Below, in pieces: positions 45,403 through 53,701 of a stretch of 64,000 nucleotides of DNA. How positions within the stretch are numbered: position 1 is the first letter of the stretch; every line of letters begins with the position of its first letter. Under the pieces are notes generated by a model. That model did not search any database. It worked only from the letters and a program-made list of their open reading frames with translations, and had not been told where the DNA came from. Source of the stretch: Undibacterium umbellatum (GTDB lineage Bacteria > Pseudomonadota > Gammaproteobacteria > Burkholderiales > Burkholderiaceae_D); assembly GCF_014284125.1 (NCBI RefSeq), contig NZ_JACOFX010000014.1, positions 1 through 64,000 on the forward strand. Direction: 5' to 3'. The position numbers and the translations under genes are program-made.

Positions 45403-45478
45403 GCCGACTTAGCTCATTTGGTAGAGCAGTTGACTTGTAATCATCAGGTGGCCAGTTCGATTCCGGCAGTCGGCACCA
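45403..45478 (+). tRNA. tRNA-Thr (anticodon TGT)
   Basis: A 76-base cloverleaf with encoded CCA. The acceptor stem is GCCGACT/AGTCGGC, the D arm GCTCATTTGGTAGAGC, the anticodon loop CTTGTAA with TGT at 45436-45438, and the T arm contains GGCCAGTTCGATTCCGGC. It reads ACA and other ACN threonine codons. Confidence 0.97.
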
Positions 45479-45485
45479 AATTAAG

Positions 45486-45517
45486 AACCCATCGTTAGAA
45501 ATAACGGTGGGTTTTTT
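45486..45517 (+). terminator. Rho-independent terminator of tRNA-Thr
   Basis: AACCCATCGTTA, loop GAAA, TAACGGTGGGTT with one wobble pair, then a T-run. Confidence 0.9.
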
Positions 45518-45716: not shown

Positions 45717-47297
45717 ATGTCACCATTTAATATCTTCAACCGTATTTCGCAAGCGCCTACCAATCCCAGGCCTGTGGTCAAGCCACGGCAGTTTGATGTG
45801 GCGGCCCTGTACCAGGGGCCGGTGCAAAGCGGGGCGGCAGCGGTGGCAGGTGAGCAGGCGCTGGATGAAAAATTGCGCCAGGCGTATTTCTGGATAGTGA
45901 ATAATGCCATCATCAGCCCGCACTACGATATTGAATATAATGAAGGTCCCAGCCAGACTTACGCGGTAGGCGACAGCAAGCGCACTTTGACACTGCCATC
46001 GGCGCAAAGTTATTCCAGCTTCATCCTGCTGCCACTGCTGACTTTTGTTACCCGCAAAAAATGCCTGTTTGTTGGTGGGCCAGGACGTGGCAAGACGGCC
46101 AGTGCTATTTTGATGGGCGTACTCTCCGGCGCTCCTGTGCGCGATGTACGTCGTGCCATGCAGCATGGCCATCCTCAGATGACGATTGCCGATCTGCTCG
46201 GCAACCCGCTGCCATCTGATTTGATGGCGGCGCAGAATATGGACGATATCCGCATCGCCTGGCGCAAATGGCTGGGTATGCGTGTCAAGATCGTCGATGA
46301 ATATAACCGTATCCCCACTCGCACCCAAAGTGCCTTGCTGACAGTGATGGGTGACAATTATGCCGAGGTGCTGGGGCAGATTTTTGAATGTCCTGAATCG
46401 GCCTGGTACCTGACTGCGAATGATGACCAGGGTGGCGGCACTTATCAGGTGATTGATGCCTTGCGCGACCGCATAGACGTCACTGTGCAGGCACTGGCAT
46501 TCAATCCACGCTTTTTGAATGACTTGCTGGTACGCATAGAAGAAAATATACGGCCAGAAGAGTTGATGCCGCGTGAATTGATTTTCACTGAGGAGGAGGT
46601 TGATCGCGCGGGAGAAGAAATCCGCCAGATTGAAGTGCCGCCAGAAGTGCGGCACAGGCTGGAATTTTTTTGCAGCCAGTTTGAATTGTTTGAAACTGCT
46701 GGTGCCCAGTTTGAATACATGACCAAAGACACGGCGCGACTATCTGGCATGGACTGGGGGCAGCTCGTAGCAGCAGATAATGGCCGCGACCGCCTAAAGG
46801 ACCTGGGTTGCCAGACCATGAACGGGGTATCGGTCCGCAATCTCATGACCTTGTTGATTTTTGCCAAATCACTGGCTTATTTTCGCGGTAATAAAAGTGT
46901 GGAACTGGACGACCTGCGCCAGGTTCTGCCCTTTGTCTTGCTGGATAAACTGCATCCTGACATCGATGCCCCGTTTTTCTCGCGTCCAGAAAACGCAGCC
47001 TACAAGACTGACCGCCTGGGCTGGTTGCGCCGCTTGTTTGATCTCTCGAATGATGAATTCAACCGTCTTGACCTGGACAGGGATGATCCTGTAGGAGAAC
47101 TGGCTGCCGAATTCGCCCAGGGCTTGAACGATGTCAGTGAACGCGATACCAGAGCGAGGCTAATGAGAATAGAACGCCTGATCGGTGACCGTGTCAAAGG
47201 CCGTAAATTATATGGTCATTTATATGATGATTTGCTCAAGCTGAAATACCTGCACCAGCGCTATACCAATTATCTCAAGTGGCTGCGCTCGCAATGA
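45717..47297 (+). CDS. MoxR-type AAA+ ATPase, first gene of a seven-gene cluster
   Basis: 526 residues. Walker A is GGPGRGKT (residues 120-127), Walker B KIVDEYNRIP (about 191-200) with Asp-Glu, sensor 1 is Asn235 in YLTANDDQGGG, and arginines in ALRDRID may serve as finger. The order and the DEYNRIPTRTQSALL segment are typical of the MoxR clade, chaperone-like ATPases that work with vWA proteins. An N-terminal region of about 110 residues and a C-terminal part of about 270 residues have no motif I know. The next gene overlaps its stop (ATGA). A vWA partner is encoded two genes on. The exact clients are unknown. Confidence 0.85.
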   Translation: MSPFNIFNRISQAPTNPRPVVKPRQFDVAALYQGPVQSGAAAVAGEQALDEKLRQAYFWIVNNAIISPHYDIEYNEGPSQTYAVGDSKRTLTLPSAQSYSSFILLPLLTFVTRKKCLFVGGPGRGKTASAILMGVLSGAPVRDVRRAMQHGHPQMTIADLLGNPLPSDLMAAQNMDDIRIAWRKWLGMRVKIVDEYNRIPTRTQSALLTVMGDNYAEVLGQIFECPESAWYLTANDDQGGGTYQVIDALRDRIDVTVQALAFNPRFLNDLLVRIEENIRPEELMPRELIFTEEEVDRAGEEIRQIEVPPEVRHRLEFFCSQFELFETAGAQFEYMTKDTARLSGMDWGQLVAADNGRDRLKDLGCQTMNGVSVRNLMTLLIFAKSLAYFRGNKSVELDDLRQVLPFVLLDKLHPDIDAPFFSRPENAAYKTDRLGWLRRLFDLSNDEFNRLDLDRDDPVGELAAEFAQGLNDVSERDTRARLMRIERLIGDRVKGRKLYGHLYDDLLKLKYLHQRYTNYLKWLRSQ

Positions 47298-48292
47298 TAT
47301 CCGGACCCTTTGCTCAAGTACTGGCGGCCGGGCGCAGCCAGTTCAATGCCAGGGTTGTCGAGGCCAGAAGGCGCTATCCTGCTTTTGATGTGCAGGCCCT
47401 GTCCGATTTTTTGCAAAACAGCGTAACCCCGGTCGTGCAAGCTGTATCAGCGCACATGCCAGATAGACTTGCCGTGATTGCTCTTACTGCCTACGATATT
47501 GCGCTTGATCTGGTTGGCCAGGCTTTTACCGGTACCGGTGCACGCAGCAAGATTGTTGACAGAGTATGGCAGGATTTATTGCCAGTCTATACCCACATAC
47601 TGGTCAATGCGCCGACGGAGGTGTTTGCCCTGCTCACAAATGCCGCACTGAATATAGAAAAGACGCCTGGCGCAAGAGTAGATCAATGGCTGAGTGAAAT
47701 GAAAAACATCGCGCCACTGATCACCACTTTGTCTGCCTTGCAGGCGACCGGGCAGGTATTGGCATGGCGTACAGGCATGACGCACTTCAGGGAGGGGGGG
47801 ATGGCCATCGCCGATACCTTGCCACCGGCTTTGTTATTGCAATTGCTGGGTGCAGAAGCAGGTAGTGACTGGCAACTGATAAAAAAACAAATGCAGCAAG
47901 ACCCCTGGTGGTGCCCCGATGCAAAGCAAATGAATGTGAACGAGCATGGCATTTCTATAGGTCATTTCACAGGCTTGGGCGGTGCTTTCCCAGCGCCGCC
48001 AGAGTTGCGTGCCTTTGAATATGGTTTTTGGGTAAAAAGTGCTGATCGCTATTTTTTGCTGATGGCAGATGTCTATGGGGCAGTCCTGCATGGGGCGAGC
48101 CAGGAGGAATTTGAGCATGGCCCTGTGCTTACTGGTCCCCTTGCGGCCACCGTACAGGGTAGTAGCTTGCTGACCAGACGAGGCAAACATAACTTGAACT
48201 TGCCTGCAAAAGAATTGGTTTTGACTTGCAATCTGCATACGGTCGCGGTCAGCTCACCGTATACATATGGCATCAGCCTGTATCCACTGTAA
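47294..48292 (+). CDS. Unknown protein X of the MoxR/vWA cluster
   Basis: 332 residues from the ATG at 47294, which overlaps the MoxR stop by four bases (a GTG at 47279 is a weaker choice). No signal peptide or membrane helix. The first 190 residues look all-helical (RARRYP-like MxxRR, LTAYDIALDLVGQAF, LNIEKTPGARVDQWL). The last 110 look beta-rich, with the odd segment GHFTGLGGAFPAPPELR. I recognise no family. By context it may be an adaptor or client linking ATPase and vWA protein, comparable with third components of predicted MoxR-vWA ternary systems; this is inference. Its stop overlaps the next start (TAATG). Confidence 0.8.
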   Translation: MISGPFAQVLAAGRSQFNARVVEARRRYPAFDVQALSDFLQNSVTPVVQAVSAHMPDRLAVIALTAYDIALDLVGQAFTGTGARSKIVDRVWQDLLPVYTHILVNAPTEVFALLTNAALNIEKTPGARVDQWLSEMKNIAPLITTLSALQATGQVLAWRTGMTHFREGGMAIADTLPPALLLQLLGAEAGSDWQLIKKQMQQDPWWCPDAKQMNVNEHGISIGHFTGLGGAFPAPPELRAFEYGFWVKSADRYFLLMADVYGAVLHGASQEEFEHGPVLTGPLAATVQGSSLLTRRGKHNLNLPAKELVLTCNLHTVAVSSPYTYGISLYPL

Positions 48293-50100
48293 TGAATACG
48301 CAATCCACAGAGCAGCAAACCAATACTCAGCAAACCCTGCTCGCAACATGGCAGGCGGCGTGGCCACAGGCGCTGGCTGCATGGAGCAGGTTTACGCGCC
48401 TGCATGAACCCCTATTGTGTGTAAGCCGCCTGGCTGCCTCGCAAGCAGGCTTGAGTGGCAGCTTTGCCATGATACGTCTGTCCGATCAAAGTGTTGTAGT
48501 GGACCTGGAAGGCATACAGCAACTAGGTTTGCAAGATTATGCCCTTGAAATTCTGGCGCATGAAGTTGGCCATCATGTGTTTGCGCCCGGCAGTGTGACT
48601 GAACAATTCCGCCTGCTGGCCAGGATACGCCGCGCCTTGCCCACGCTGGAAAAATTTGCGCCCACGGTCGCCAACTTGTACACAGACCTTTACATCAATG
48701 ACAGGTTGCACAGGCAGGCCAGTTTGCGCATGGCAGACATATATTTGCGTCTTGCGCAACATGGCAGAGGCAAGAGCGAAAACGCCGCGACTGCCGGCAG
48801 CCAGATCTGGGTGCTATACATGCGCATCTATGAGCAATTATGGAAACTGGAAAAAGGCAGCCTGATTGCCAGTAATGCCGTCAGCCCAGAAATGGATACG
48901 GATGCCTGGCTGGGCGCACGTTTGATACGTGTATATGCAGGCGACTGGATGCATGGCGCAGGCAAGTTTGCCACGCTGCTGCTACCCTATCTGATTGCCG
49001 ATAATGAAGCCAGCGCCAGCCAGCAAGCGCTGGCACATTTACATGATACCAAAGATGCTGCGGCAGGTTGCGAACCGATAGGTGCACAGGAGATAGAGGC
49101 GGATGAAATCAATGGTGCTGTCCACCCGGCCAATGACCCTCTGGTATCAGGTGTGGATGAGGTCATGACATCCCCAGATGAAAATACCGCATCGTCATCA
49201 TCAGGACAAACCCGCGAGCCTTATGAATATGGTGAAATCCTCAGGGCCGCAGGCATACAGATGTCGGATCATGAAATTGCCATACGCTATTACCGTGAAC
49301 GTGCCTTGCCACATCTGGTGCCTTTCCCGAAGCGACCCAATCCGCAATCACCAGAACCGCAGCTGGAAGGGCTGGAACAATGGGATATAGGCGAACCCTT
49401 TGATGAAATAGACTGGCTGCAGACTTTGCTGCAGTCGCCGCACCCCATCCCTGGCCTGACCACGGTAAAACGTGCTTACGGCAACGAGCAGGGCAAAGAC
49501 CCCGGACATATACCCATAGACCTGGATATGTATGTAGACAGTTCAGGTTCCATGCCCAATCCGCAGACGCATACATCCTACTTGACGCTGGCGGGGGCCA
49601 TTATCGCCATGTCAGCTTTGCGCGCGGGCTCGCGTGTGCAGGTGACTTTGTGGAGCGGCAAGAACCAAACCCTGCAAACCAATGGCTTTGTGCGTGATGA
49701 TGCGGAAATACTCAGCGTGCTGACCGGCTTTTTTGGCGGTGCAACCTGCTTTCCCATACCTCAAATGCGCGATACATTCGCCAGCAGAAAACCGGAGGAC
49801 CGCGCCGTGCATATCCTGATGATTTCCGACGATGGCATTACCACTATGTTTGATAAAGACGAGCTTGGCAACGACGGCTGGGATATCTCCGCCATGGCCC
49901 TGGAAAAAGGACGTGCCGGTGGCAGCATGGCCTTGAATTTGCCATCGGACTGGGAAAAAGAATCCAGATACTATGCGCAGGTGCCACAGGACCTGAAGCG
50001 TGCTCGCGATGAGCAGGGATGGCATATCCATGCCATCACCGGGTTCGAGCATTTGATGGAATTCGCCCGCGTTTTCAGTCAGCAACATTATCTGAGGTAA
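48292..50100 (+). CDS. Metallopeptidase-like plus von Willebrand A domain protein
   Basis: 602 residues from the ATG at 48292 that overlaps the previous stop. The N-terminal domain has a zinc-metallopeptidase signature HEVGHH (His90, Glu91, His94) followed by NLYTDLYINDRL, which may give the third ligand; the layout recalls the putative metallopeptidase region of DUF2201 proteins. A low-complexity acidic linker (about 270-310) leads to a C-terminal vWA domain with a complete MIDAS: DSSGS (Asp416, Ser418, Ser420), a threonine in FGGATCFP and ISDDGIT. vWA proteins are the usual partners of MoxR ATPases. No signal peptide, so it acts in the cytoplasm. Confidence 0.85.
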   Translation: MNTQSTEQQTNTQQTLLATWQAAWPQALAAWSRFTRLHEPLLCVSRLAASQAGLSGSFAMIRLSDQSVVVDLEGIQQLGLQDYALEILAHEVGHHVFAPGSVTEQFRLLARIRRALPTLEKFAPTVANLYTDLYINDRLHRQASLRMADIYLRLAQHGRGKSENAATAGSQIWVLYMRIYEQLWKLEKGSLIASNAVSPEMDTDAWLGARLIRVYAGDWMHGAGKFATLLLPYLIADNEASASQQALAHLHDTKDAAAGCEPIGAQEIEADEINGAVHPANDPLVSGVDEVMTSPDENTASSSSGQTREPYEYGEILRAAGIQMSDHEIAIRYYRERALPHLVPFPKRPNPQSPEPQLEGLEQWDIGEPFDEIDWLQTLLQSPHPIPGLTTVKRAYGNEQGKDPGHIPIDLDMYVDSSGSMPNPQTHTSYLTLAGAIIAMSALRAGSRVQVTLWSGKNQTLQTNGFVRDDAEILSVLTGFFGGATCFPIPQMRDTFASRKPEDRAVHILMISDDGITTMFDKDELGNDGWDISAMALEKGRAGGSMALNLPSDWEKESRYYAQVPQDLKRARDEQGWHIHAITGFEHLMEFARVFSQQHYLR

Positions 50101-50111
50101 GCAAAAAAAGC

Positions 50112-50699
50112 ATGGATAACATTGGCCCTATACTGGAAACCCTGACGCACAGGCTGGCAAACATACCGCCAGATTTCCTCGATGAACCGCGCATGGCAAA
50201 AAACAATAAAGGCGTCGCCGTGGCAGCACTTGTCAACGATGTATTGCGCATGCTGGGTAATGTATCGCCGCTCGATGGCCTGGAAAAATTTGATGGTATG
50301 GATGCGGGCAAAGACAGAAACCGTCTGGCCCTGACCATGATCGCTACCTGGTTGCTGGCAGATGAGTGGTTTATCAAAGCCGCGCTACCAGCGGCGCAGT
50401 TCATGACGATACTTGACCAGACTGTTGCTGAGTTGGCTGCTGCCACTGCCGCACACAAATTTGCCAGTGACCCTGACAGACGCGAAGAACTGGCCAGGGT
50501 AGTGCTGGCGCGTTTGAATTACCGACCCTATGGCGAAAGCCTGGCGCAAGCGACAGACAGATTATCCAGCATCAGCGGTATAGAGCGTCGCCGACTTGTC
50601 GAAGCCAGCCGCGCAGCAGAGCAGCGTGCACGCGCCATACGTGAAGCGCTGGCAAAGAAAGCGGCAGAAGAATCTGCCGATAAGTGGACGCGTGAATGA
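50112..50699 (+). CDS. Unknown helical protein Y of the MoxR/vWA cluster
   Basis: 195 residues from the ATG at 50112; upstream in-frame sequence overlaps the vWA gene and is rejected. It appears all-alpha (MDNIGPILETLTHRLANIPP; VVLARLNYRPYGESLAQA; a charged C-terminal coiled helix ASRAAEQRARAIREALAKK). No motif or family recognised. It lies 11 bases after the vWA stop and 10 before the ligase, so it is surely in the same transcript. It may be a structural subunit of an ATPase/vWA assembly. Confidence 0.8.
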   Translation: MDNIGPILETLTHRLANIPPDFLDEPRMAKNNKGVAVAALVNDVLRMLGNVSPLDGLEKFDGMDAGKDRNRLALTMIATWLLADEWFIKAALPAAQFMTILDQTVAELAAATAAHKFASDPDRREELARVVLARLNYRPYGESLAQATDRLSSISGIERRRLVEASRAAEQRARAIREALAKKAAEESADKWTRE

Positions 50700-50709
50700 G
50701 GACACGTGA

Positions 50710-52062
50710 ATGAGCCTGGCTACATCACAAGAGATCAGCAATTTTCCGACCTTGTCTGAACACGGCAGGGCCATGCTGGATTTCATGACTGAGCATCCAT
50801 CTGCTCCCACCTTTCGCAATCAAAGTGGTAACCGCCTGCTTGAGAATGAAGTGGAAAAGCTGCGTGATTTTGAAAAAAAACATATAGGCCAGCCCATTAC
50901 ATGGGCCCCTGGCCTGGAACCTGACTGGCTCAGGCAATTCATTGCGCATGTCTTTACCCATGTCCCACATTACCGGGCCCTGGGTTCTGCTCCACAAAAA
51001 TTTGCAGACATACCTACAATCAACCGCGCTGACCTGGCAGCAGATATTGCTGCCTTTGTGCCAGACACTGTGCCCCTGGAAAGGCTCATCAATTTTCGTA
51101 CCACAGGTACGACTGGCCACCCCATGCTCATTGCTTCCCATCCTGTCGTGGCGGCACGTTACCTGACTTTCCACAAACGGGCTTTACTGCTGAATGGCAT
51201 TCGACTGCGGCACGGACGCGGGCAAGTCGGCGTGGTGCTGGTGGGTTTCCAGCAGCGCTGTTTTACCTATACTTCGGTGACGCCCACCATGGATGATTCT
51301 GGCCTGGCCAAGATCAATTTGCATGTGGATGACTGGCGTGAACCAGAAGACCGCGCGCGCTATCTGGATGCGCTGGCACCAGAAGTCATGACGGGTGACC
51401 CGCTTTCATTTGCAGAGCTGACAAAACTGGAATTGACAAAATTGCCGCGCGCGCTGATCTCGGTTTCCATGGCCCTTTCAGCCGGTATGCGGCAGATGCT
51501 GGAAGCACGTTTTCACTGCCCTGTGCTGGATATTTATTCCCTCAATGAAGTCGGGCCTGTGGCTGTGTATGATGCCGCTGTTGGCGGCCATCTGCTGTTG
51601 CAGCCAGAATTATATGTAGAGATACTCGACAGTAAAGGCCAGCCAGTAGCAACTGGCCAGCGTGGTGAAATTTGTCTGTCTGGCGGCTTCAATTTTTGCA
51701 TGCCGCTGCTGCGTTACCGCACAGGTGATTTTGCCTCAATGGCGATCAGTGCCAAAGGCCCCATGCTGGTCGGTCTGGCTGGTCGTTCCCCAGTCAGGTT
51801 TCAAACCAGGACTGGTGCCTGGGTCAACAATATCGACATCACCCATGCATTACAGGCCTTGCCGCTGCCACAATATGGTTTTCATCAACGTGCAGATGGC
51901 CGCAGCGTCATACGACTGGCCCCATCTGTCATGCACTTGGCGGACGAAGCAAAGCAGGCACTGGCAAGCTTATTCAATATCCGGCAGCTGATAGTAGAGA
52001 CGATAACGACTGATAATAAAATACTGCAATACACATCCGACCTGGAAGGCGCTCACCCTTGA
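50710..52062 (+). CDS. Adenylate-forming ligase, PaaK (phenylacetate-CoA ligase)-like
   Basis: 450 residues. The AMP-binding phosphate loop is RTTGTTGHP (130-138), the adenine-site motif YSLNEVGPVAVYD, and the ribose-binding region PLLRYRTGDFASM. It resembles the PaaK branch. Such enzymes activate a carboxylate as acyl-AMP and then pass it to CoA, an amine or a carrier. The C-terminal subdomain is short. The substrate cannot be told. It lies between the MoxR/vWA genes and the NAD-salvage genes, with a TTGA overlap to pnuC. Confidence 0.85.
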   Translation: MSLATSQEISNFPTLSEHGRAMLDFMTEHPSAPTFRNQSGNRLLENEVEKLRDFEKKHIGQPITWAPGLEPDWLRQFIAHVFTHVPHYRALGSAPQKFADIPTINRADLAADIAAFVPDTVPLERLINFRTTGTTGHPMLIASHPVVAARYLTFHKRALLLNGIRLRHGRGQVGVVLVGFQQRCFTYTSVTPTMDDSGLAKINLHVDDWREPEDRARYLDALAPEVMTGDPLSFAELTKLELTKLPRALISVSMALSAGMRQMLEARFHCPVLDIYSLNEVGPVAVYDAAVGGHLLLQPELYVEILDSKGQPVATGQRGEICLSGGFNFCMPLLRYRTGDFASMAISAKGPMLVGLAGRSPVRFQTRTGAWVNNIDITHALQALPLPQYGFHQRADGRSVIRLAPSVMHLADEAKQALASLFNIRQLIVETITTDNKILQYTSDLEGAHP

Positions 52063-52649
52063 TTTCAGCATTAGAATTGTCTGCCAATGCAGTCACCACA
52101 GCCTCCATTATTTTGGCAGGACGCAATAGCGTACACACCTGGTGGACAGGCATCATAGGCAGCATCTTGTTTGCCCTGGTGTTTGGCCAGGCCCTGCTGT
52201 ATGCCGATGTATTGCTGCAGTTATTTTTTATCGTTACCAGCATGACAGGCTGGTGGCAATGGTTGAGAGGGCGTAATGGTAGGCCGCTACCAATTTCCAG
52301 GGCAGGCCATGCCAGCTATCTATGGTCCATACCTGTGGGTTTGCTGGCAACGCTGGGCTATGGGATGCTCTTGTACTACTGGACCAAGGCTTATGCCCCT
52401 TTTGTCGATTCAGCGGTACTGGTATTCAGTATCATCGCGCAGATACTATTGATGCAAAGGCGCATGGAAACCTGGGTATTCTGGCTGCTGGTGAATACCA
52501 TCGCCGTACCACTGTATGCCAGCCGCGAATTGTATCTGACAGCTTTCCTGTATGCGTTTTACTGGATCAATGCCATTGTGTCCTGGCTGGCATGGCGGAA
52601 AAACCTGAACAGTGACCAGGCTATTTCTTTTGTGGTTGCGGCAAAATGA
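52059..52649 (+). CDS. pnuC: PnuC-family nicotinamide riboside transporter
   Basis: 196 residues with about seven predicted membrane helices. The PnuC motif region is SIILAGRNSVHTWWTGIIGS, shown in part, then FFIVTSMTGWWQWLRG and WVFWLLVNTIAVPLY. The start is a TTG at 52059 overlapping the ligase stop; no ATG is available near the N-terminus. PnuC carries nicotinamide riboside by facilitated diffusion; trapping needs phosphorylation, supplied by the next gene. Overlaps it by four bases. Confidence 0.9.
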   Translation: MISALELSANAVTTASIILAGRNSVHTWWTGIIGSILFALVFGQALLYADVLLQLFFIVTSMTGWWQWLRGRNGRPLPISRAGHASYLWSIPVGLLATLGYGMLLYYWTKAYAPFVDSAVLVFSIIAQILLMQRRMETWVFWLLVNTIAVPLYASRELYLTAFLYAFYWINAIVSWLAWRKNLNSDQAISFVVAAK

Positions 52650-53701
52650 GCAAGACATTTCAGCGTGGTTTGATCGTCGGCAAATTCTGCCCCTTGCATA
52701 AAGGGCATGAATACCTGATCGAGCAGGCAATCGCGGCATGTGAAGACTTGCTGGTGATCAGTTATACCAAACCAGAATTTCCCTTATGTGGCCCGCTAGT
52801 ACGTGAGCGCTGGCTGGCGCTGTCATTCCCGTATATCCAGCAGTTGGTCATCGATGATGTGATCTTGCAGCGCTTGTGTAGCGAACGTGGCATACAGCAC
52901 ATCCCTGAAGTTCCTCATAACGATGCCGCTGAGGATATACACCGGCAGTTCGTCGCCTGGCTATGCCTGGCGCTACTGGATAGCACGGCTGATGCTGTTT
53001 TCACCAGTGAAGATTATGGTGATGGTTTTGCAGCGGTGCTGACGCAGCGCTTTCAGCAGCATGATCCTGGCTTGCCTGTCGTGGCCCATATCAAGCTGGA
53101 CCAGCAGCGTCTTACCGTGCCTGTGTCCGGGACCAAAGTGCGCCTGGATCCCCATGCAAATAAAGCGTATCTGTCCAGCCACGTGTATGCCAGCTTTGTC
53201 AAAAAGATTTGCCTGCTGGGTGCTGAGTCCAGCGGCAAGACCACCCTGGCCGAGGCGCTTGCACGGCATTTGCATACCCTGTGGGTGCCGGAATATGGGC
53301 GTGATCTGTGGGTAGAAAAAGATGGGCAACTGGTGTTTGAAGATATGCAGGCCATCGCCGTGAAGCAACTGGCACATGAAGAGCAGTTGCGTCCCCAGGC
53401 AAACCAGTGGCTGGTCTGCGATACTTCGCCAATGACGACCTTGCTGTATAGCCTGGCGATGTTTCAACAAGCATCTGATGCCTTGCAAGACATGGCAAAT
53501 ACGCCCTATGACTTCATCATCCTGTGCGATATAGATATCCCCCTGATACAGGATGGTACGCGTCAGGACCAGGCTTTCCGGCTGCATCAGCAAGAATGGT
53601 ATAAACAGCAACTGGCGCAGCGTACCTTGCCTTATTTGCGCGTTTGCGGCAGCCTTGAGCAGCGGCTATCCCAGGTCATGAAATATCTGGGTGGCAAATA
53701 A
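52646..53701 (+). CDS. nadR: NadR-like NMN adenylyltransferase / ribosylnicotinamide kinase
   Basis: 351 residues. The N-terminal nucleotidyltransferase domain has GKFCPLHKGHEYLI and the ISGTK-type motif VSGTKVR. The C-terminal kinase has Walker A GAESSGKTT (192-200) and CDTSPMTTLLYS. Together they convert nicotinamide riboside to NMN and NAD. The N-terminal helix-turn-helix of the E. coli repressor is absent, so this form is enzymatic only. It closes the cluster; no terminator was seen in the 178 bases that follow. Confidence 0.9.
   Translation: MSKTFQRGLIVGKFCPLHKGHEYLIEQAIAACEDLLVISYTKPEFPLCGPLVRERWLALSFPYIQQLVIDDVILQRLCSERGIQHIPEVPHNDAAEDIHRQFVAWLCLALLDSTADAVFTSEDYGDGFAAVLTQRFQQHDPGLPVVAHIKLDQQRLTVPVSGTKVRLDPHANKAYLSSHVYASFVKKICLLGAESSGKTTLAEALARHLHTLWVPEYGRDLWVEKDGQLVFEDMQAIAVKQLAHEEQLRPQANQWLVCDTSPMTTLLYSLAMFQQASDALQDMANTPYDFIILCDIDIPLIQDGTRQDQAFRLHQQEWYKQQLAQRTLPYLRVCGSLEQRLSQVMKYLGGK

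What the first reader, a model, noticed from the sequence alone, without database searches (positions are those of the whole stretch)
45717..53701. Seven-gene MoxR / unknown X / metallopeptidase-vWA / unknown Y / AMP-ligase / PnuC / NadR cluster
Seen: seven plus-strand genes packed with overlaps (ATGA, TAATG, TTGA, ATGA) or gaps of 10-11 bases, starting just after a tRNA-Thr and its terminator. Known: MoxR ATPases with vWA partners form chaperone- or conflict-type modules; PnuC plus NadR import and trap nicotinamide riboside for NAD; PaaK-like enzymes make acyl-AMP. Inference: a single system that couples an ATPase/vWA machine to acyl-adenylate chemistry and NAD supply, perhaps a defence, stress or protein-modification system that uses or replaces NAD. 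I do not know a described system with this set.
Basis: partly seen in the sequence, partly recalled or inferred. Interest (0 to 1): 0.88.

Follow-up and report, generated by a model that had tools for sequence, protein, structure and literature searches.

The report
AAA+ machine coupled to NAD salvage
A block of seven or eight genes that diverse bacteria inherit together couples an ATP-driven protein-remodelling machine and a carboxylate-activating enzyme to its own supply line for the coenzyme NAD; I found no description of it, and what it does is not known.

Summary
In detail: seven + strand genes, 45717-53701, overlapping or 10-11 bases apart, behind a tRNA-Thr and terminator. They form one system. 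The MoxR gene brought back 80 loci (of 163 relatives), from Pseudomonadota and from MAGs assigned to other phyla: X in 79, metallopeptidase-VWA in 77, Y in 74, ligase in 74, NadR in 68, PnuC in 37, a radical-SAM gene in 33, usually in one order with a median overlap of 4 bases. X and Y have confident predicted structures without a PDB match at E<=0.001. Nicotinamide-riboside salvage is linked: diverged PnuC-NadR pairs replace the usual one twice; Janthinobacterium clusters lack PnuC, but a second PnuC exists in 32 of 32 genomes with Y and 1 of 8 without; ADP-ribosylglycohydrolase/NrtR genes are enriched in the flanks. Phage, plasmid and viral searches found nothing; Y is in 32 of 40 Janthinobacterium; in Undibacterium the cluster fills a tRNA-DPP4 site that is empty in 4 of 5 relatives tested. 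I favour an AAA+/VWA maturation machine with ligase chemistry and its own NAD supply over phage defence. Y ends in [WY][STA]R[ED] in 74 of 74, a likely docking or modification tail. The client is unknown.

The parts
45717..47297 (+). MoxR-type AAA+ ATPase, 526 aa
   Evidence: Pfam AAA_3 1.2e-6; GPGRGKT-type Walker A 79 of 80, DEYNR 80 of 80; mean identity 76% over 80 loci; distant PDB relative 2r44, E 2.4e-7
47294..48292 (+). X, orphan protein, 332 aa: helical N part, all-beta C part
   Evidence: no Pfam or NCBIfam match over a cut-off, no PADLOC match; model pLDDT 95.9; no PDB or viral fold match at E<=0.001; in 79 of 80 loci
48292..50100 (+). HEXXH metallopeptidase-like region plus C-terminal VWA with MIDAS motif, 602 aa
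   Evidence: VWA_2 E 0.031, below cut-off, 19 of 30 members match at E<=0.1; HEXXH 77 of 77, DxSxS 75 of 77; no PDB sequence match at E<=1
50112..50699 (+). Y, orphan all-helical protein, 195 aa, ends ...ADKWTRE
   Evidence: no Pfam or NCBIfam match over a cut-off, no PADLOC match; pLDDT 92.8; no PDB fold match at E<=0.001; C-terminal [WY][STA]R[ED] 74 of 74
50710..52062 (+). PaaK-like AMP-forming ligase, 450 aa
   Evidence: AMP-binding 3.2e-8, over cut-off; PDB relatives PaaK 2y4o, 9s3l; K437 invariant in 27 of 27 aligned; TTGTTG-type and YRTGD-type motifs 71 of 74 each, but the strict C-terminal pattern KxxQYTSDL in 39 of 74 only
52059..52649 (+). PnuC nicotinamide-riboside transporter, second copy in this genome
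   Evidence: NMN_transporter 2e-45; TIGR01528 over cut-off; other copy at G000:C15, 34% identical
52646..53701 (+). NadR-type bifunctional NMN adenylyltransferase / ribosylnicotinamide kinase, 351 aa
   Evidence: TIGR01526 3.1e-41 but below its cut-off; AAA_28 1.3e-30; in 66 NadR over 300 aa: HxGH 66, Walker A 66, E[YFV]GR 64
45403..45478 (+). tRNA-Thr (TGT), left border of the inserted block
   Evidence: tRNA-Thr followed by DPP4 within about 200 bases in 4 of 5 Undibacterium tested that lack the cluster
45483..45516 (+). terminator-like stem-loop of the tRNA
   Evidence: conserved in the empty-site relative L103

Best explanation
One accessory chromosomal operon encodes an ATP-driven maturation (remodelling) machine with its own NAD supply. 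Shown by sequence: the genes are translationally coupled, travel together and mostly keep their catalytic motifs. Inferred: MoxR forms a hexameric ring; X and the VWA protein dock on it. Y, whose last residue is acidic in every copy examined, presents its C-terminal helix to the VWA MIDAS site or the ring pore and so couples the ring to a client. The HEXXH region trims or unfolds the client, the AMP-ligase activates a carboxylate to acylate Y, the client or a cofactor part, and the radical-SAM protein, where present, adds a further step. PnuC and NadR import nicotinamide riboside and turn it into NAD+ because the client, or a step of the pathway, consumes or carries NAD. The client is most likely a chromosomally encoded enzyme outside the cluster.
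For: Gene set and order in 80 loci; overlaps; distance correlations MoxR-VWA 0.94, Y-LIG 0.94, LIG-NadR 0.86; catalytic motifs; NR salvage replaced by a ~35% identical pair upstream (L017, L027, L031) and by a ~30% identical inverted pair (L070); second PnuC in 3 of 3 Undibacterium with and 0 of 33 without the cluster, and in 32 of 32 Janthinobacterium with and 1 of 8 without Y, its type checked in 3 genomes; ARH in the flanks of 4 of 80 loci and NrtR of 3; no match in the phage, plasmid and viral searches, mostly ordinary flanks. Known biology: MoxR/VWA pairs mature or remodel client proteins (PMC7159879 section 8; PMC9976466 abstract).
Against: No client was found in or near the cluster. No complex was modelled. 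The VWA match is weak by profile, and X diverges fast (mean identity 43%). NadR is not adjacent at L010, L046, L066, L073 and L080, and L088 has only a remnant, so local NAD supply is not strictly needed; PnuC distances correlate poorly with MoxR (0.41). The strict ligase C-terminal pattern is found in 39 of 74. No core protein is a recognisable NAD consumer. Co-occurrence counts share ancestry, and 3 of the 8 Janthinobacterium without Y are under 90% complete.
Confidence: 0.45

Rival explanations
1. A biological-conflict (anti-phage or stress) system of the MoxR-vWA ternary type: the machine senses attack, an effector acts, and NAD salvage restores NAD lost to NADases or ADP-ribosylation.
For: MoxR plus VWA plus a third component is the plan of described conflict systems, and one of those has a radical-SAM effector (PMC7159879, passages). 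Patchy: X in 4 of 98 relatives, the window's genome included, Y in 3 of 369 class genomes, likewise, 4 of 247 in another family. Inserted next to a tRNA in Undibacterium. X, the least conserved member, could be a varying part. L066 has NrtR, PARG, KptA and ARH next door, L010 a TCAD9 protein.
Against: Core without PADLOC match except weak hits to the NadR P-loop; no described third component found by Pfam; no hit in 50,697 phage and 72,556 plasmid records nor IMG/VR with the proteins searched; in 32 of 40 Janthinobacterium; MoxR mean identity 76%; 103 flank proteins gave 13 PADLOC families at E<=1e-10, each matched by one protein.
Confidence: 0.2
2. A biosynthetic route to a small molecule or cofactor: NR becomes NAD or a relative, the ligase and radical-SAM protein alter it, and MoxR-X-VWA installs it as chelatase-like MoxR/VWA pairs install metals.
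For: Ligase of the AMP-binding family with PaaK-like relatives; its core motifs in 71 of 74; MoxR's only NCBIfam match is Mg-chelatase subunit D, weak, 19 bits against a cut-off of 499.55; radical SAM with CxxxCxxC in 33 of 33 and further conserved cysteines.
Against: Radical SAM not found at 43 of the 74 loci with Y (the rest of those genomes was not searched); no other tailoring enzyme or recipient seen; NadR motifs argue for ordinary NAD synthesis.
Confidence: 0.25
3. Two ordinary operons, a MoxR/VWA chaperone and an NR-salvage set, that merely lie side by side.
For: A PnuC beside a NadR-kinase-like gene exists elsewhere in the window's genome and in one Janthinobacterium examined.
Against: Coupling at Y>LIG in 74 loci; all X or Y hits lie in complete or near-complete clusters; replacements and the second PnuC in trans.
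Confidence: 0.03

Closest known systems
MoxR-vWA ternary conflict systems (Kaur et al. 2020, PMC7159879; outline, sections 8 and 22 and passages read)
   Same: MoxR AAA+ plus VWA protein plus further component; radical-SAM partner in one subtype
   Different: X and Y match no Pfam family over a cut-off; no varying effector modules seen; adds AMP-ligase and NR salvage
NorQ/NorD-type MoxR/VWA maturation pairs (PMC9976466, abstract and outline)
   Same: MoxR plus VWA, ATP-driven remodelling of a client
   Different: no client gene in the cluster; HEXXH region, X, Y, ligase and NAD salvage are extra
Jumbo-phage MoxR with metallopeptidase-vWA pair (PMC7824862, passages)
   Same: MoxR next to a VWA protein with an N-terminal metallopeptidase region
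   Different: tblastn of MoxR and VWA against 50,697 phage records found nothing at E<=1e-3
ARG (ADP-ribosylglycohydrolase) centred systems with Nudix regulator and vWA chaperone (PMC9503650, section 31 and passages)
   Same: NAD/ADP-ribose theme; NrtR and ARH in the flanks of a few loci
   Different: ARH in the flanks of 4 of 80 loci only; core set different
PnuC-NadR nicotinamide-riboside salvage
   Same: same transporter and bifunctional enzyme with intact motifs
   Different: a dedicated second PnuC, tied to the MoxR cluster
DVU_1553 family / PaaK AMP-dependent CoA ligases
   Same: best NCBIfam match (80.2 bits) and PDB relatives
   Different: far below both equivalog cut-offs (300 and 646 bits)

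Membership tests
MoxR AAA+ / VWA pair | MoxR-type AAA+ ATPase with Walker motifs | tested here: met
   AAA_3 28.9 bits, cut-off 27; motifs 79 and 80 of 80
MoxR AAA+ / VWA pair | partner with MIDAS motif | tested here: met
   DxSxS 75 of 77
MoxR AAA+ / VWA pair | partner matches a VWA profile over its cut-off | tested here: inconclusive
   15.3 against 27 bits in the window; 19 of 30 members at E<=0.1, best 0.0026
MoxR AAA+ / VWA pair | ATP-driven remodelling of a client in a hexamer | not testable with these tools
   inference from the family
MoxR-vWA ternary conflict systems (PMC7159879) | third component of a described type (VMAP, iSTAND, FtsH or beta-propeller protein) | tested here: not met
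   no Pfam family over cut-off in X or Y; predicted folds without PDB match at E<=0.001; weak X hits to propellers at E>=0.05 only
MoxR-vWA ternary conflict systems (PMC7159879) | rapidly varying effectors | tested here: inconclusive
   mean identities 76, 61, 56 and 61% for MoxR, VWA, Y, LIG, but 43% for X; no yardstick proteins compared
known anti-phage defence systems | match to a PADLOC model | tested here: not met
   6 of 7 proteins none, NadR weak P-loop hits only, best 0.0011
PnuC / NadR NR salvage | PnuC profile over cut-off | tested here: met
   TIGR01528 78.2 against 42.45
PnuC / NadR NR salvage | NadR equivalog model over cut-off | tested here: not met
   TIGR01526 141.7 against 341.15
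PnuC / NadR NR salvage | both NadR active sites intact | tested here: met
   HxGH and Walker A in 66 of 66, E[YFV]GR 64 of 66
PaaK phenylacetate-CoA ligase | equivalog model over cut-off | tested here: not met
   TIGR02155 40.1 against 646.3; AMP-binding Pfam met
radical SAM/SPASM maturases (genes in relatives) | Radical_SAM profile and CxxxCxxC | tested here: met
   40.9 bits against 29.5 in L007; 33 of 33
radical SAM/SPASM maturases (genes in relatives) | SPASM profile over cut-off | tested here: not met
   15.5 against 21.5 in L007
ARG-centred systems (PMC9503650) | ADP-ribosylglycohydrolase in the core | tested here: not met
   ARH in the flanks of 4 of 80 loci

The most novel reading that the evidence does not exclude
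The cluster makes and installs a nicotinamide-derived cofactor or protein modification: imported nicotinamide riboside becomes NAD(H) or a relative, the AMP-ligase (with the radical-SAM enzyme where present) builds it or attaches it to Y's conserved C-terminal tail, and the MoxR-X-VWA ring transfers it into a client enzyme.
Probability: 0.1. Interest if true: 0.95.

Novelty: new variant of a known kind. Interest (0 to 1): 0.77.

Why it matters
It is a tightly co-inherited gene set, also present in MAGs assigned to several phyla, that I did not find described, with two orphan folds, and it ties a AAA+/VWA machine to acyl-adenylate chemistry and a dedicated NAD supply. If the reading holds, MoxR/VWA machines, many of whose clients are unknown (recalled), gain a class with a testable metabolite input (nicotinamide riboside) and a testable docking tail (Y C-terminus). 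Janthinobacterium, where 32 of 40 genomes carry Y, would be a tractable host.

Tried and rejected
Rejected: chance adjacency. Not found: a phage or plasmid module (VWA was searched in phages and plasmids, MoxR in phages and IMG/VR, Y in plasmids; the other proteins in none). Not supported: defence island. There, 103 of 124 chosen flank proteins were scanned; the 124 come from 717 called flank ORFs, with 26 of 80 loci (mostly Janthinobacterium or near-duplicates) left out, at most two genes a side, none over 800 aa, and a coding-score limit; one search showed 25 of 99 families. Led nowhere: fold searches for X (PDB, viral) and Y (PDB); the second-look aligner was not available; a scan with three simple palindrome patterns upstream of MoxR (hits printed for a chosen 11 sequences only). 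A profile count was dropped because over-extended open frames contaminated the X and RSAM profiles; counts come. In one search some extracted genes carry an internal stop, from my gene-end rule or a real frameshift (NadR of L016, L024, L082; X of L080; RSAM of L066); not resolved. The ARH/NrtR enrichment uses a background from 60 Burkholderiales relatives only; L011 and L062 may be one event, which weakens P from 2e-6 to 1e-4 (ARH) and from 2e-4 to 5e-3 (NrtR). 'Slow evolution' was judged without yardstick proteins.

Paper searches: open-access library only. MoxR with NadR occurred in one paper (PMC7824862), about jumbo phages; MoxR with nicotinamide riboside in two, that one and one on cancer vaccination.
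Full report
The observation. The seven genes stand at the stated coordinates with the stated overlaps, behind a tRNA-Thr and its terminator. The window lies in an assembly of 6.46 Mb. The nearest relative with the cluster is of the same genus (G034), and its contig has the length of an Undibacterium pigrum contig (L009), so I take the genus to be Undibacterium. In the same way G047 is taken to be Janthinobacterium (contig length as L033).

What the proteins are. MoxR is a diverged MoxR AAA+ ATPase with intact Walker motifs. The VWA protein has a HEXXH motif (77 of 77) and a MIDAS motif (75 of 77). The ligase is an AMP-binding enzyme distantly related to PaaK. PnuC is a nicotinamide-riboside transporter by its curated model. 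NadR keeps both active sites but is below the curated cut-off. X and Y match no family over a cut-off. Their predicted structures are confident (pLDDT 95.9 and 92.8), and no PDB chain matches at E<=0.001.

Co-conservation. A search with the MoxR alignment found 163 relatives, of which the best 80 were kept; the other 83 were not seen. Loci from outside Pseudomonadota are MAG contigs, so the spread over phyla rests on binning. In the 80 loci X is in 79, VWA in 77, Y in 74, the ligase in 74, NadR in 68 (one a remnant), PnuC in 37, a radical-SAM gene in 33 and a small gene of unknown family in 15. Of the six loci without Y, four end at a contig end (L019, L044, L068, L069); L013 has MoxR alone, with 1.7 kb of contig left; L067 has an inserted gene and lacks Y, ligase, PnuC and NadR. 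Because MoxR was the bait, I also searched with X and Y on their own: X in 98 relatives (4 with a match, the window's genome included), Y in 369 genomes of the class (3, likewise), X in 397 of the phylum (the same 3), Y in 247 of a gammaproteobacterial family (4). The seven other genomes hit (G034, G017, G047, G109, G262, G1013, G1020) were fetched and hold the cluster; one (G047) lacks PnuC. Y occurs in 32 of 40 Janthinobacterium, of which two more (G837, G850) were fetched and hold the cluster without PnuC.

One unit. Gaps have a median of -4 at X>VWA (77), Y>LIG (74), LIG>NadR (33), LIG>PnuC (32) and PnuC>NadR (35). Distance matrices of the families correlate (MoxR-VWA 0.94, Y-LIG 0.94, LIG-NadR 0.86; lower for radical SAM, 0.63, and PnuC, 0.41, with MoxR). 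Shared ancestry inflates such values.

NAD supply is part of the system. First, in L017, L027 and L031 the PnuC-NadR pair lies upstream of MoxR, 11-13 bases away, and its NadR is only about 35% identical to the usual type; in L070 a third type (about 30%) lies inverted beside the ligase. Second, three of three Undibacterium with the cluster have two PnuC genes, while 0 of the 33 others searched have more than one. Third, Janthinobacterium clusters lack PnuC, but 32 of 32 genomes with Y have at least two PnuC hits and 1 of 8 without Y does (1 of 5 if only genomes at least 90% complete are counted). In the two genomes with Y that I fetched (G835, G848), the second PnuC is of the cluster type (55-70% to eight usual cluster PnuCs and the window's; the other copy of G835 has 30-37%) and lies beside a TonB-receptor-like gene (by eye). 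G833, without Y, has one too. Fourth, ADP-ribosylglycohydrolase genes lie within the fetched flanks (up to 10 kb) of 4 of 80 loci and NrtR of 3, against 0.09 and 0.10 expected. In L062 such a gene ends 2 bases before MoxR, behind PncA-, PncB- and NadM-like genes. L066 adds PARG and KptA. Against this, L010, L046, L066, L073 and L080 have no adjacent NadR.

Mobility. In four of five Undibacterium without the cluster that I fetched (L102, L103, L105, L106) the tRNA-Thr is followed by the DPP4 gene within about 200 bases; the fifth, L104, has other genes there, among them fimbrial and two-component ones (by eye). The window has the cluster there, and G017 has it on another contig than its tRNA-Thr. 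The block is therefore an acquired accessory island, yet the searches in phages, plasmids and IMG/VR found nothing, and the flanks of other loci are mostly ordinary.

Y's tail. All 74 Y proteins end in [WY][STA]R[ED] at the exact C-terminus, with or without the radical-SAM gene (31 and 43 loci); K191 and R194 are invariant in the 74 tails. The last 35 residues are the most conserved part (0.84 against 0.55 for residues 1-120). An acidic C-terminus on a long helix fits a ligand of the VWA MIDAS or of the ring pore, or a modification site; this is inference.

Mechanism. I commit to an AAA+/VWA maturation machine with ligase chemistry and its own NAD supply (0.45), with a cofactor-building variant (0.25) and defence (0.2) as rivals. 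The engine is of a known kind; I did not find the whole described in the searches named under Tried and rejected.

Noticed in passing
L007:4962-5930 and other loci (33 of 80): A radical-SAM gene with CxxxCxxC and further conserved cysteines, usually between VWA and Y; best NCBIfam matches are ranthipeptide and other SPASM maturases, far below their cut-offs.
   Followed up: partly
L066:4480-9976: NrtR, microbial PARG, cREC-ADP-ribosylglycohydrolase fusion, KptA and two further ADP-ribosylglycohydrolases in a row upstream of MoxR, same strand.
   Followed up: partly
L062:5207-9998 and L011:3209-9907: NrtR with PncA-, PncB-, NadM- and ADP-ribosylglycohydrolase-like genes beside the cluster; in L062 the last ends 2 bases before MoxR. 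The Pnc/Nad names are by eye; NAPRTase, ADP_ribosyl_GH and NrtR profiles were matched by members of the scans.
   Followed up: partly
L117:7339-7968, L118, L119: Cluster-type PnuC beside a TonB-receptor-like gene, away from the cluster, in Janthinobacterium.
   Followed up: partly
L008:10015-10485 (same contig as L033) and 14 further loci: Small gene (about 157 aa) without a Pfam or NCBIfam match between MoxR and X.
   Followed up: no
L104:6765-18207: The same tRNA-Thr to DPP4 interval holds fimbrial usher/chaperone-like and two-component-like genes in another Undibacterium: a variable site.
   Followed up: partly
L066:17358-21579 and L067:16189-21580: SWIM-like, second VWA-like and WGR-like genes next to the cluster, resembling E. 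coli yehLMPQ/molR; names by eye and recalled. Pfam found nothing in L067:19748-21580.
   Followed up: no
L010:7354-9684: 776-aa protein with TCAD9 and dual-specificity phosphatase matches and an isochorismatase match below its cut-off, upstream of MoxR.
   Followed up: partly
G000:C37:322091-324340: Two tandem ADP-ribosylglycohydrolase genes in the window's own genome, away from the cluster.
   Followed up: no
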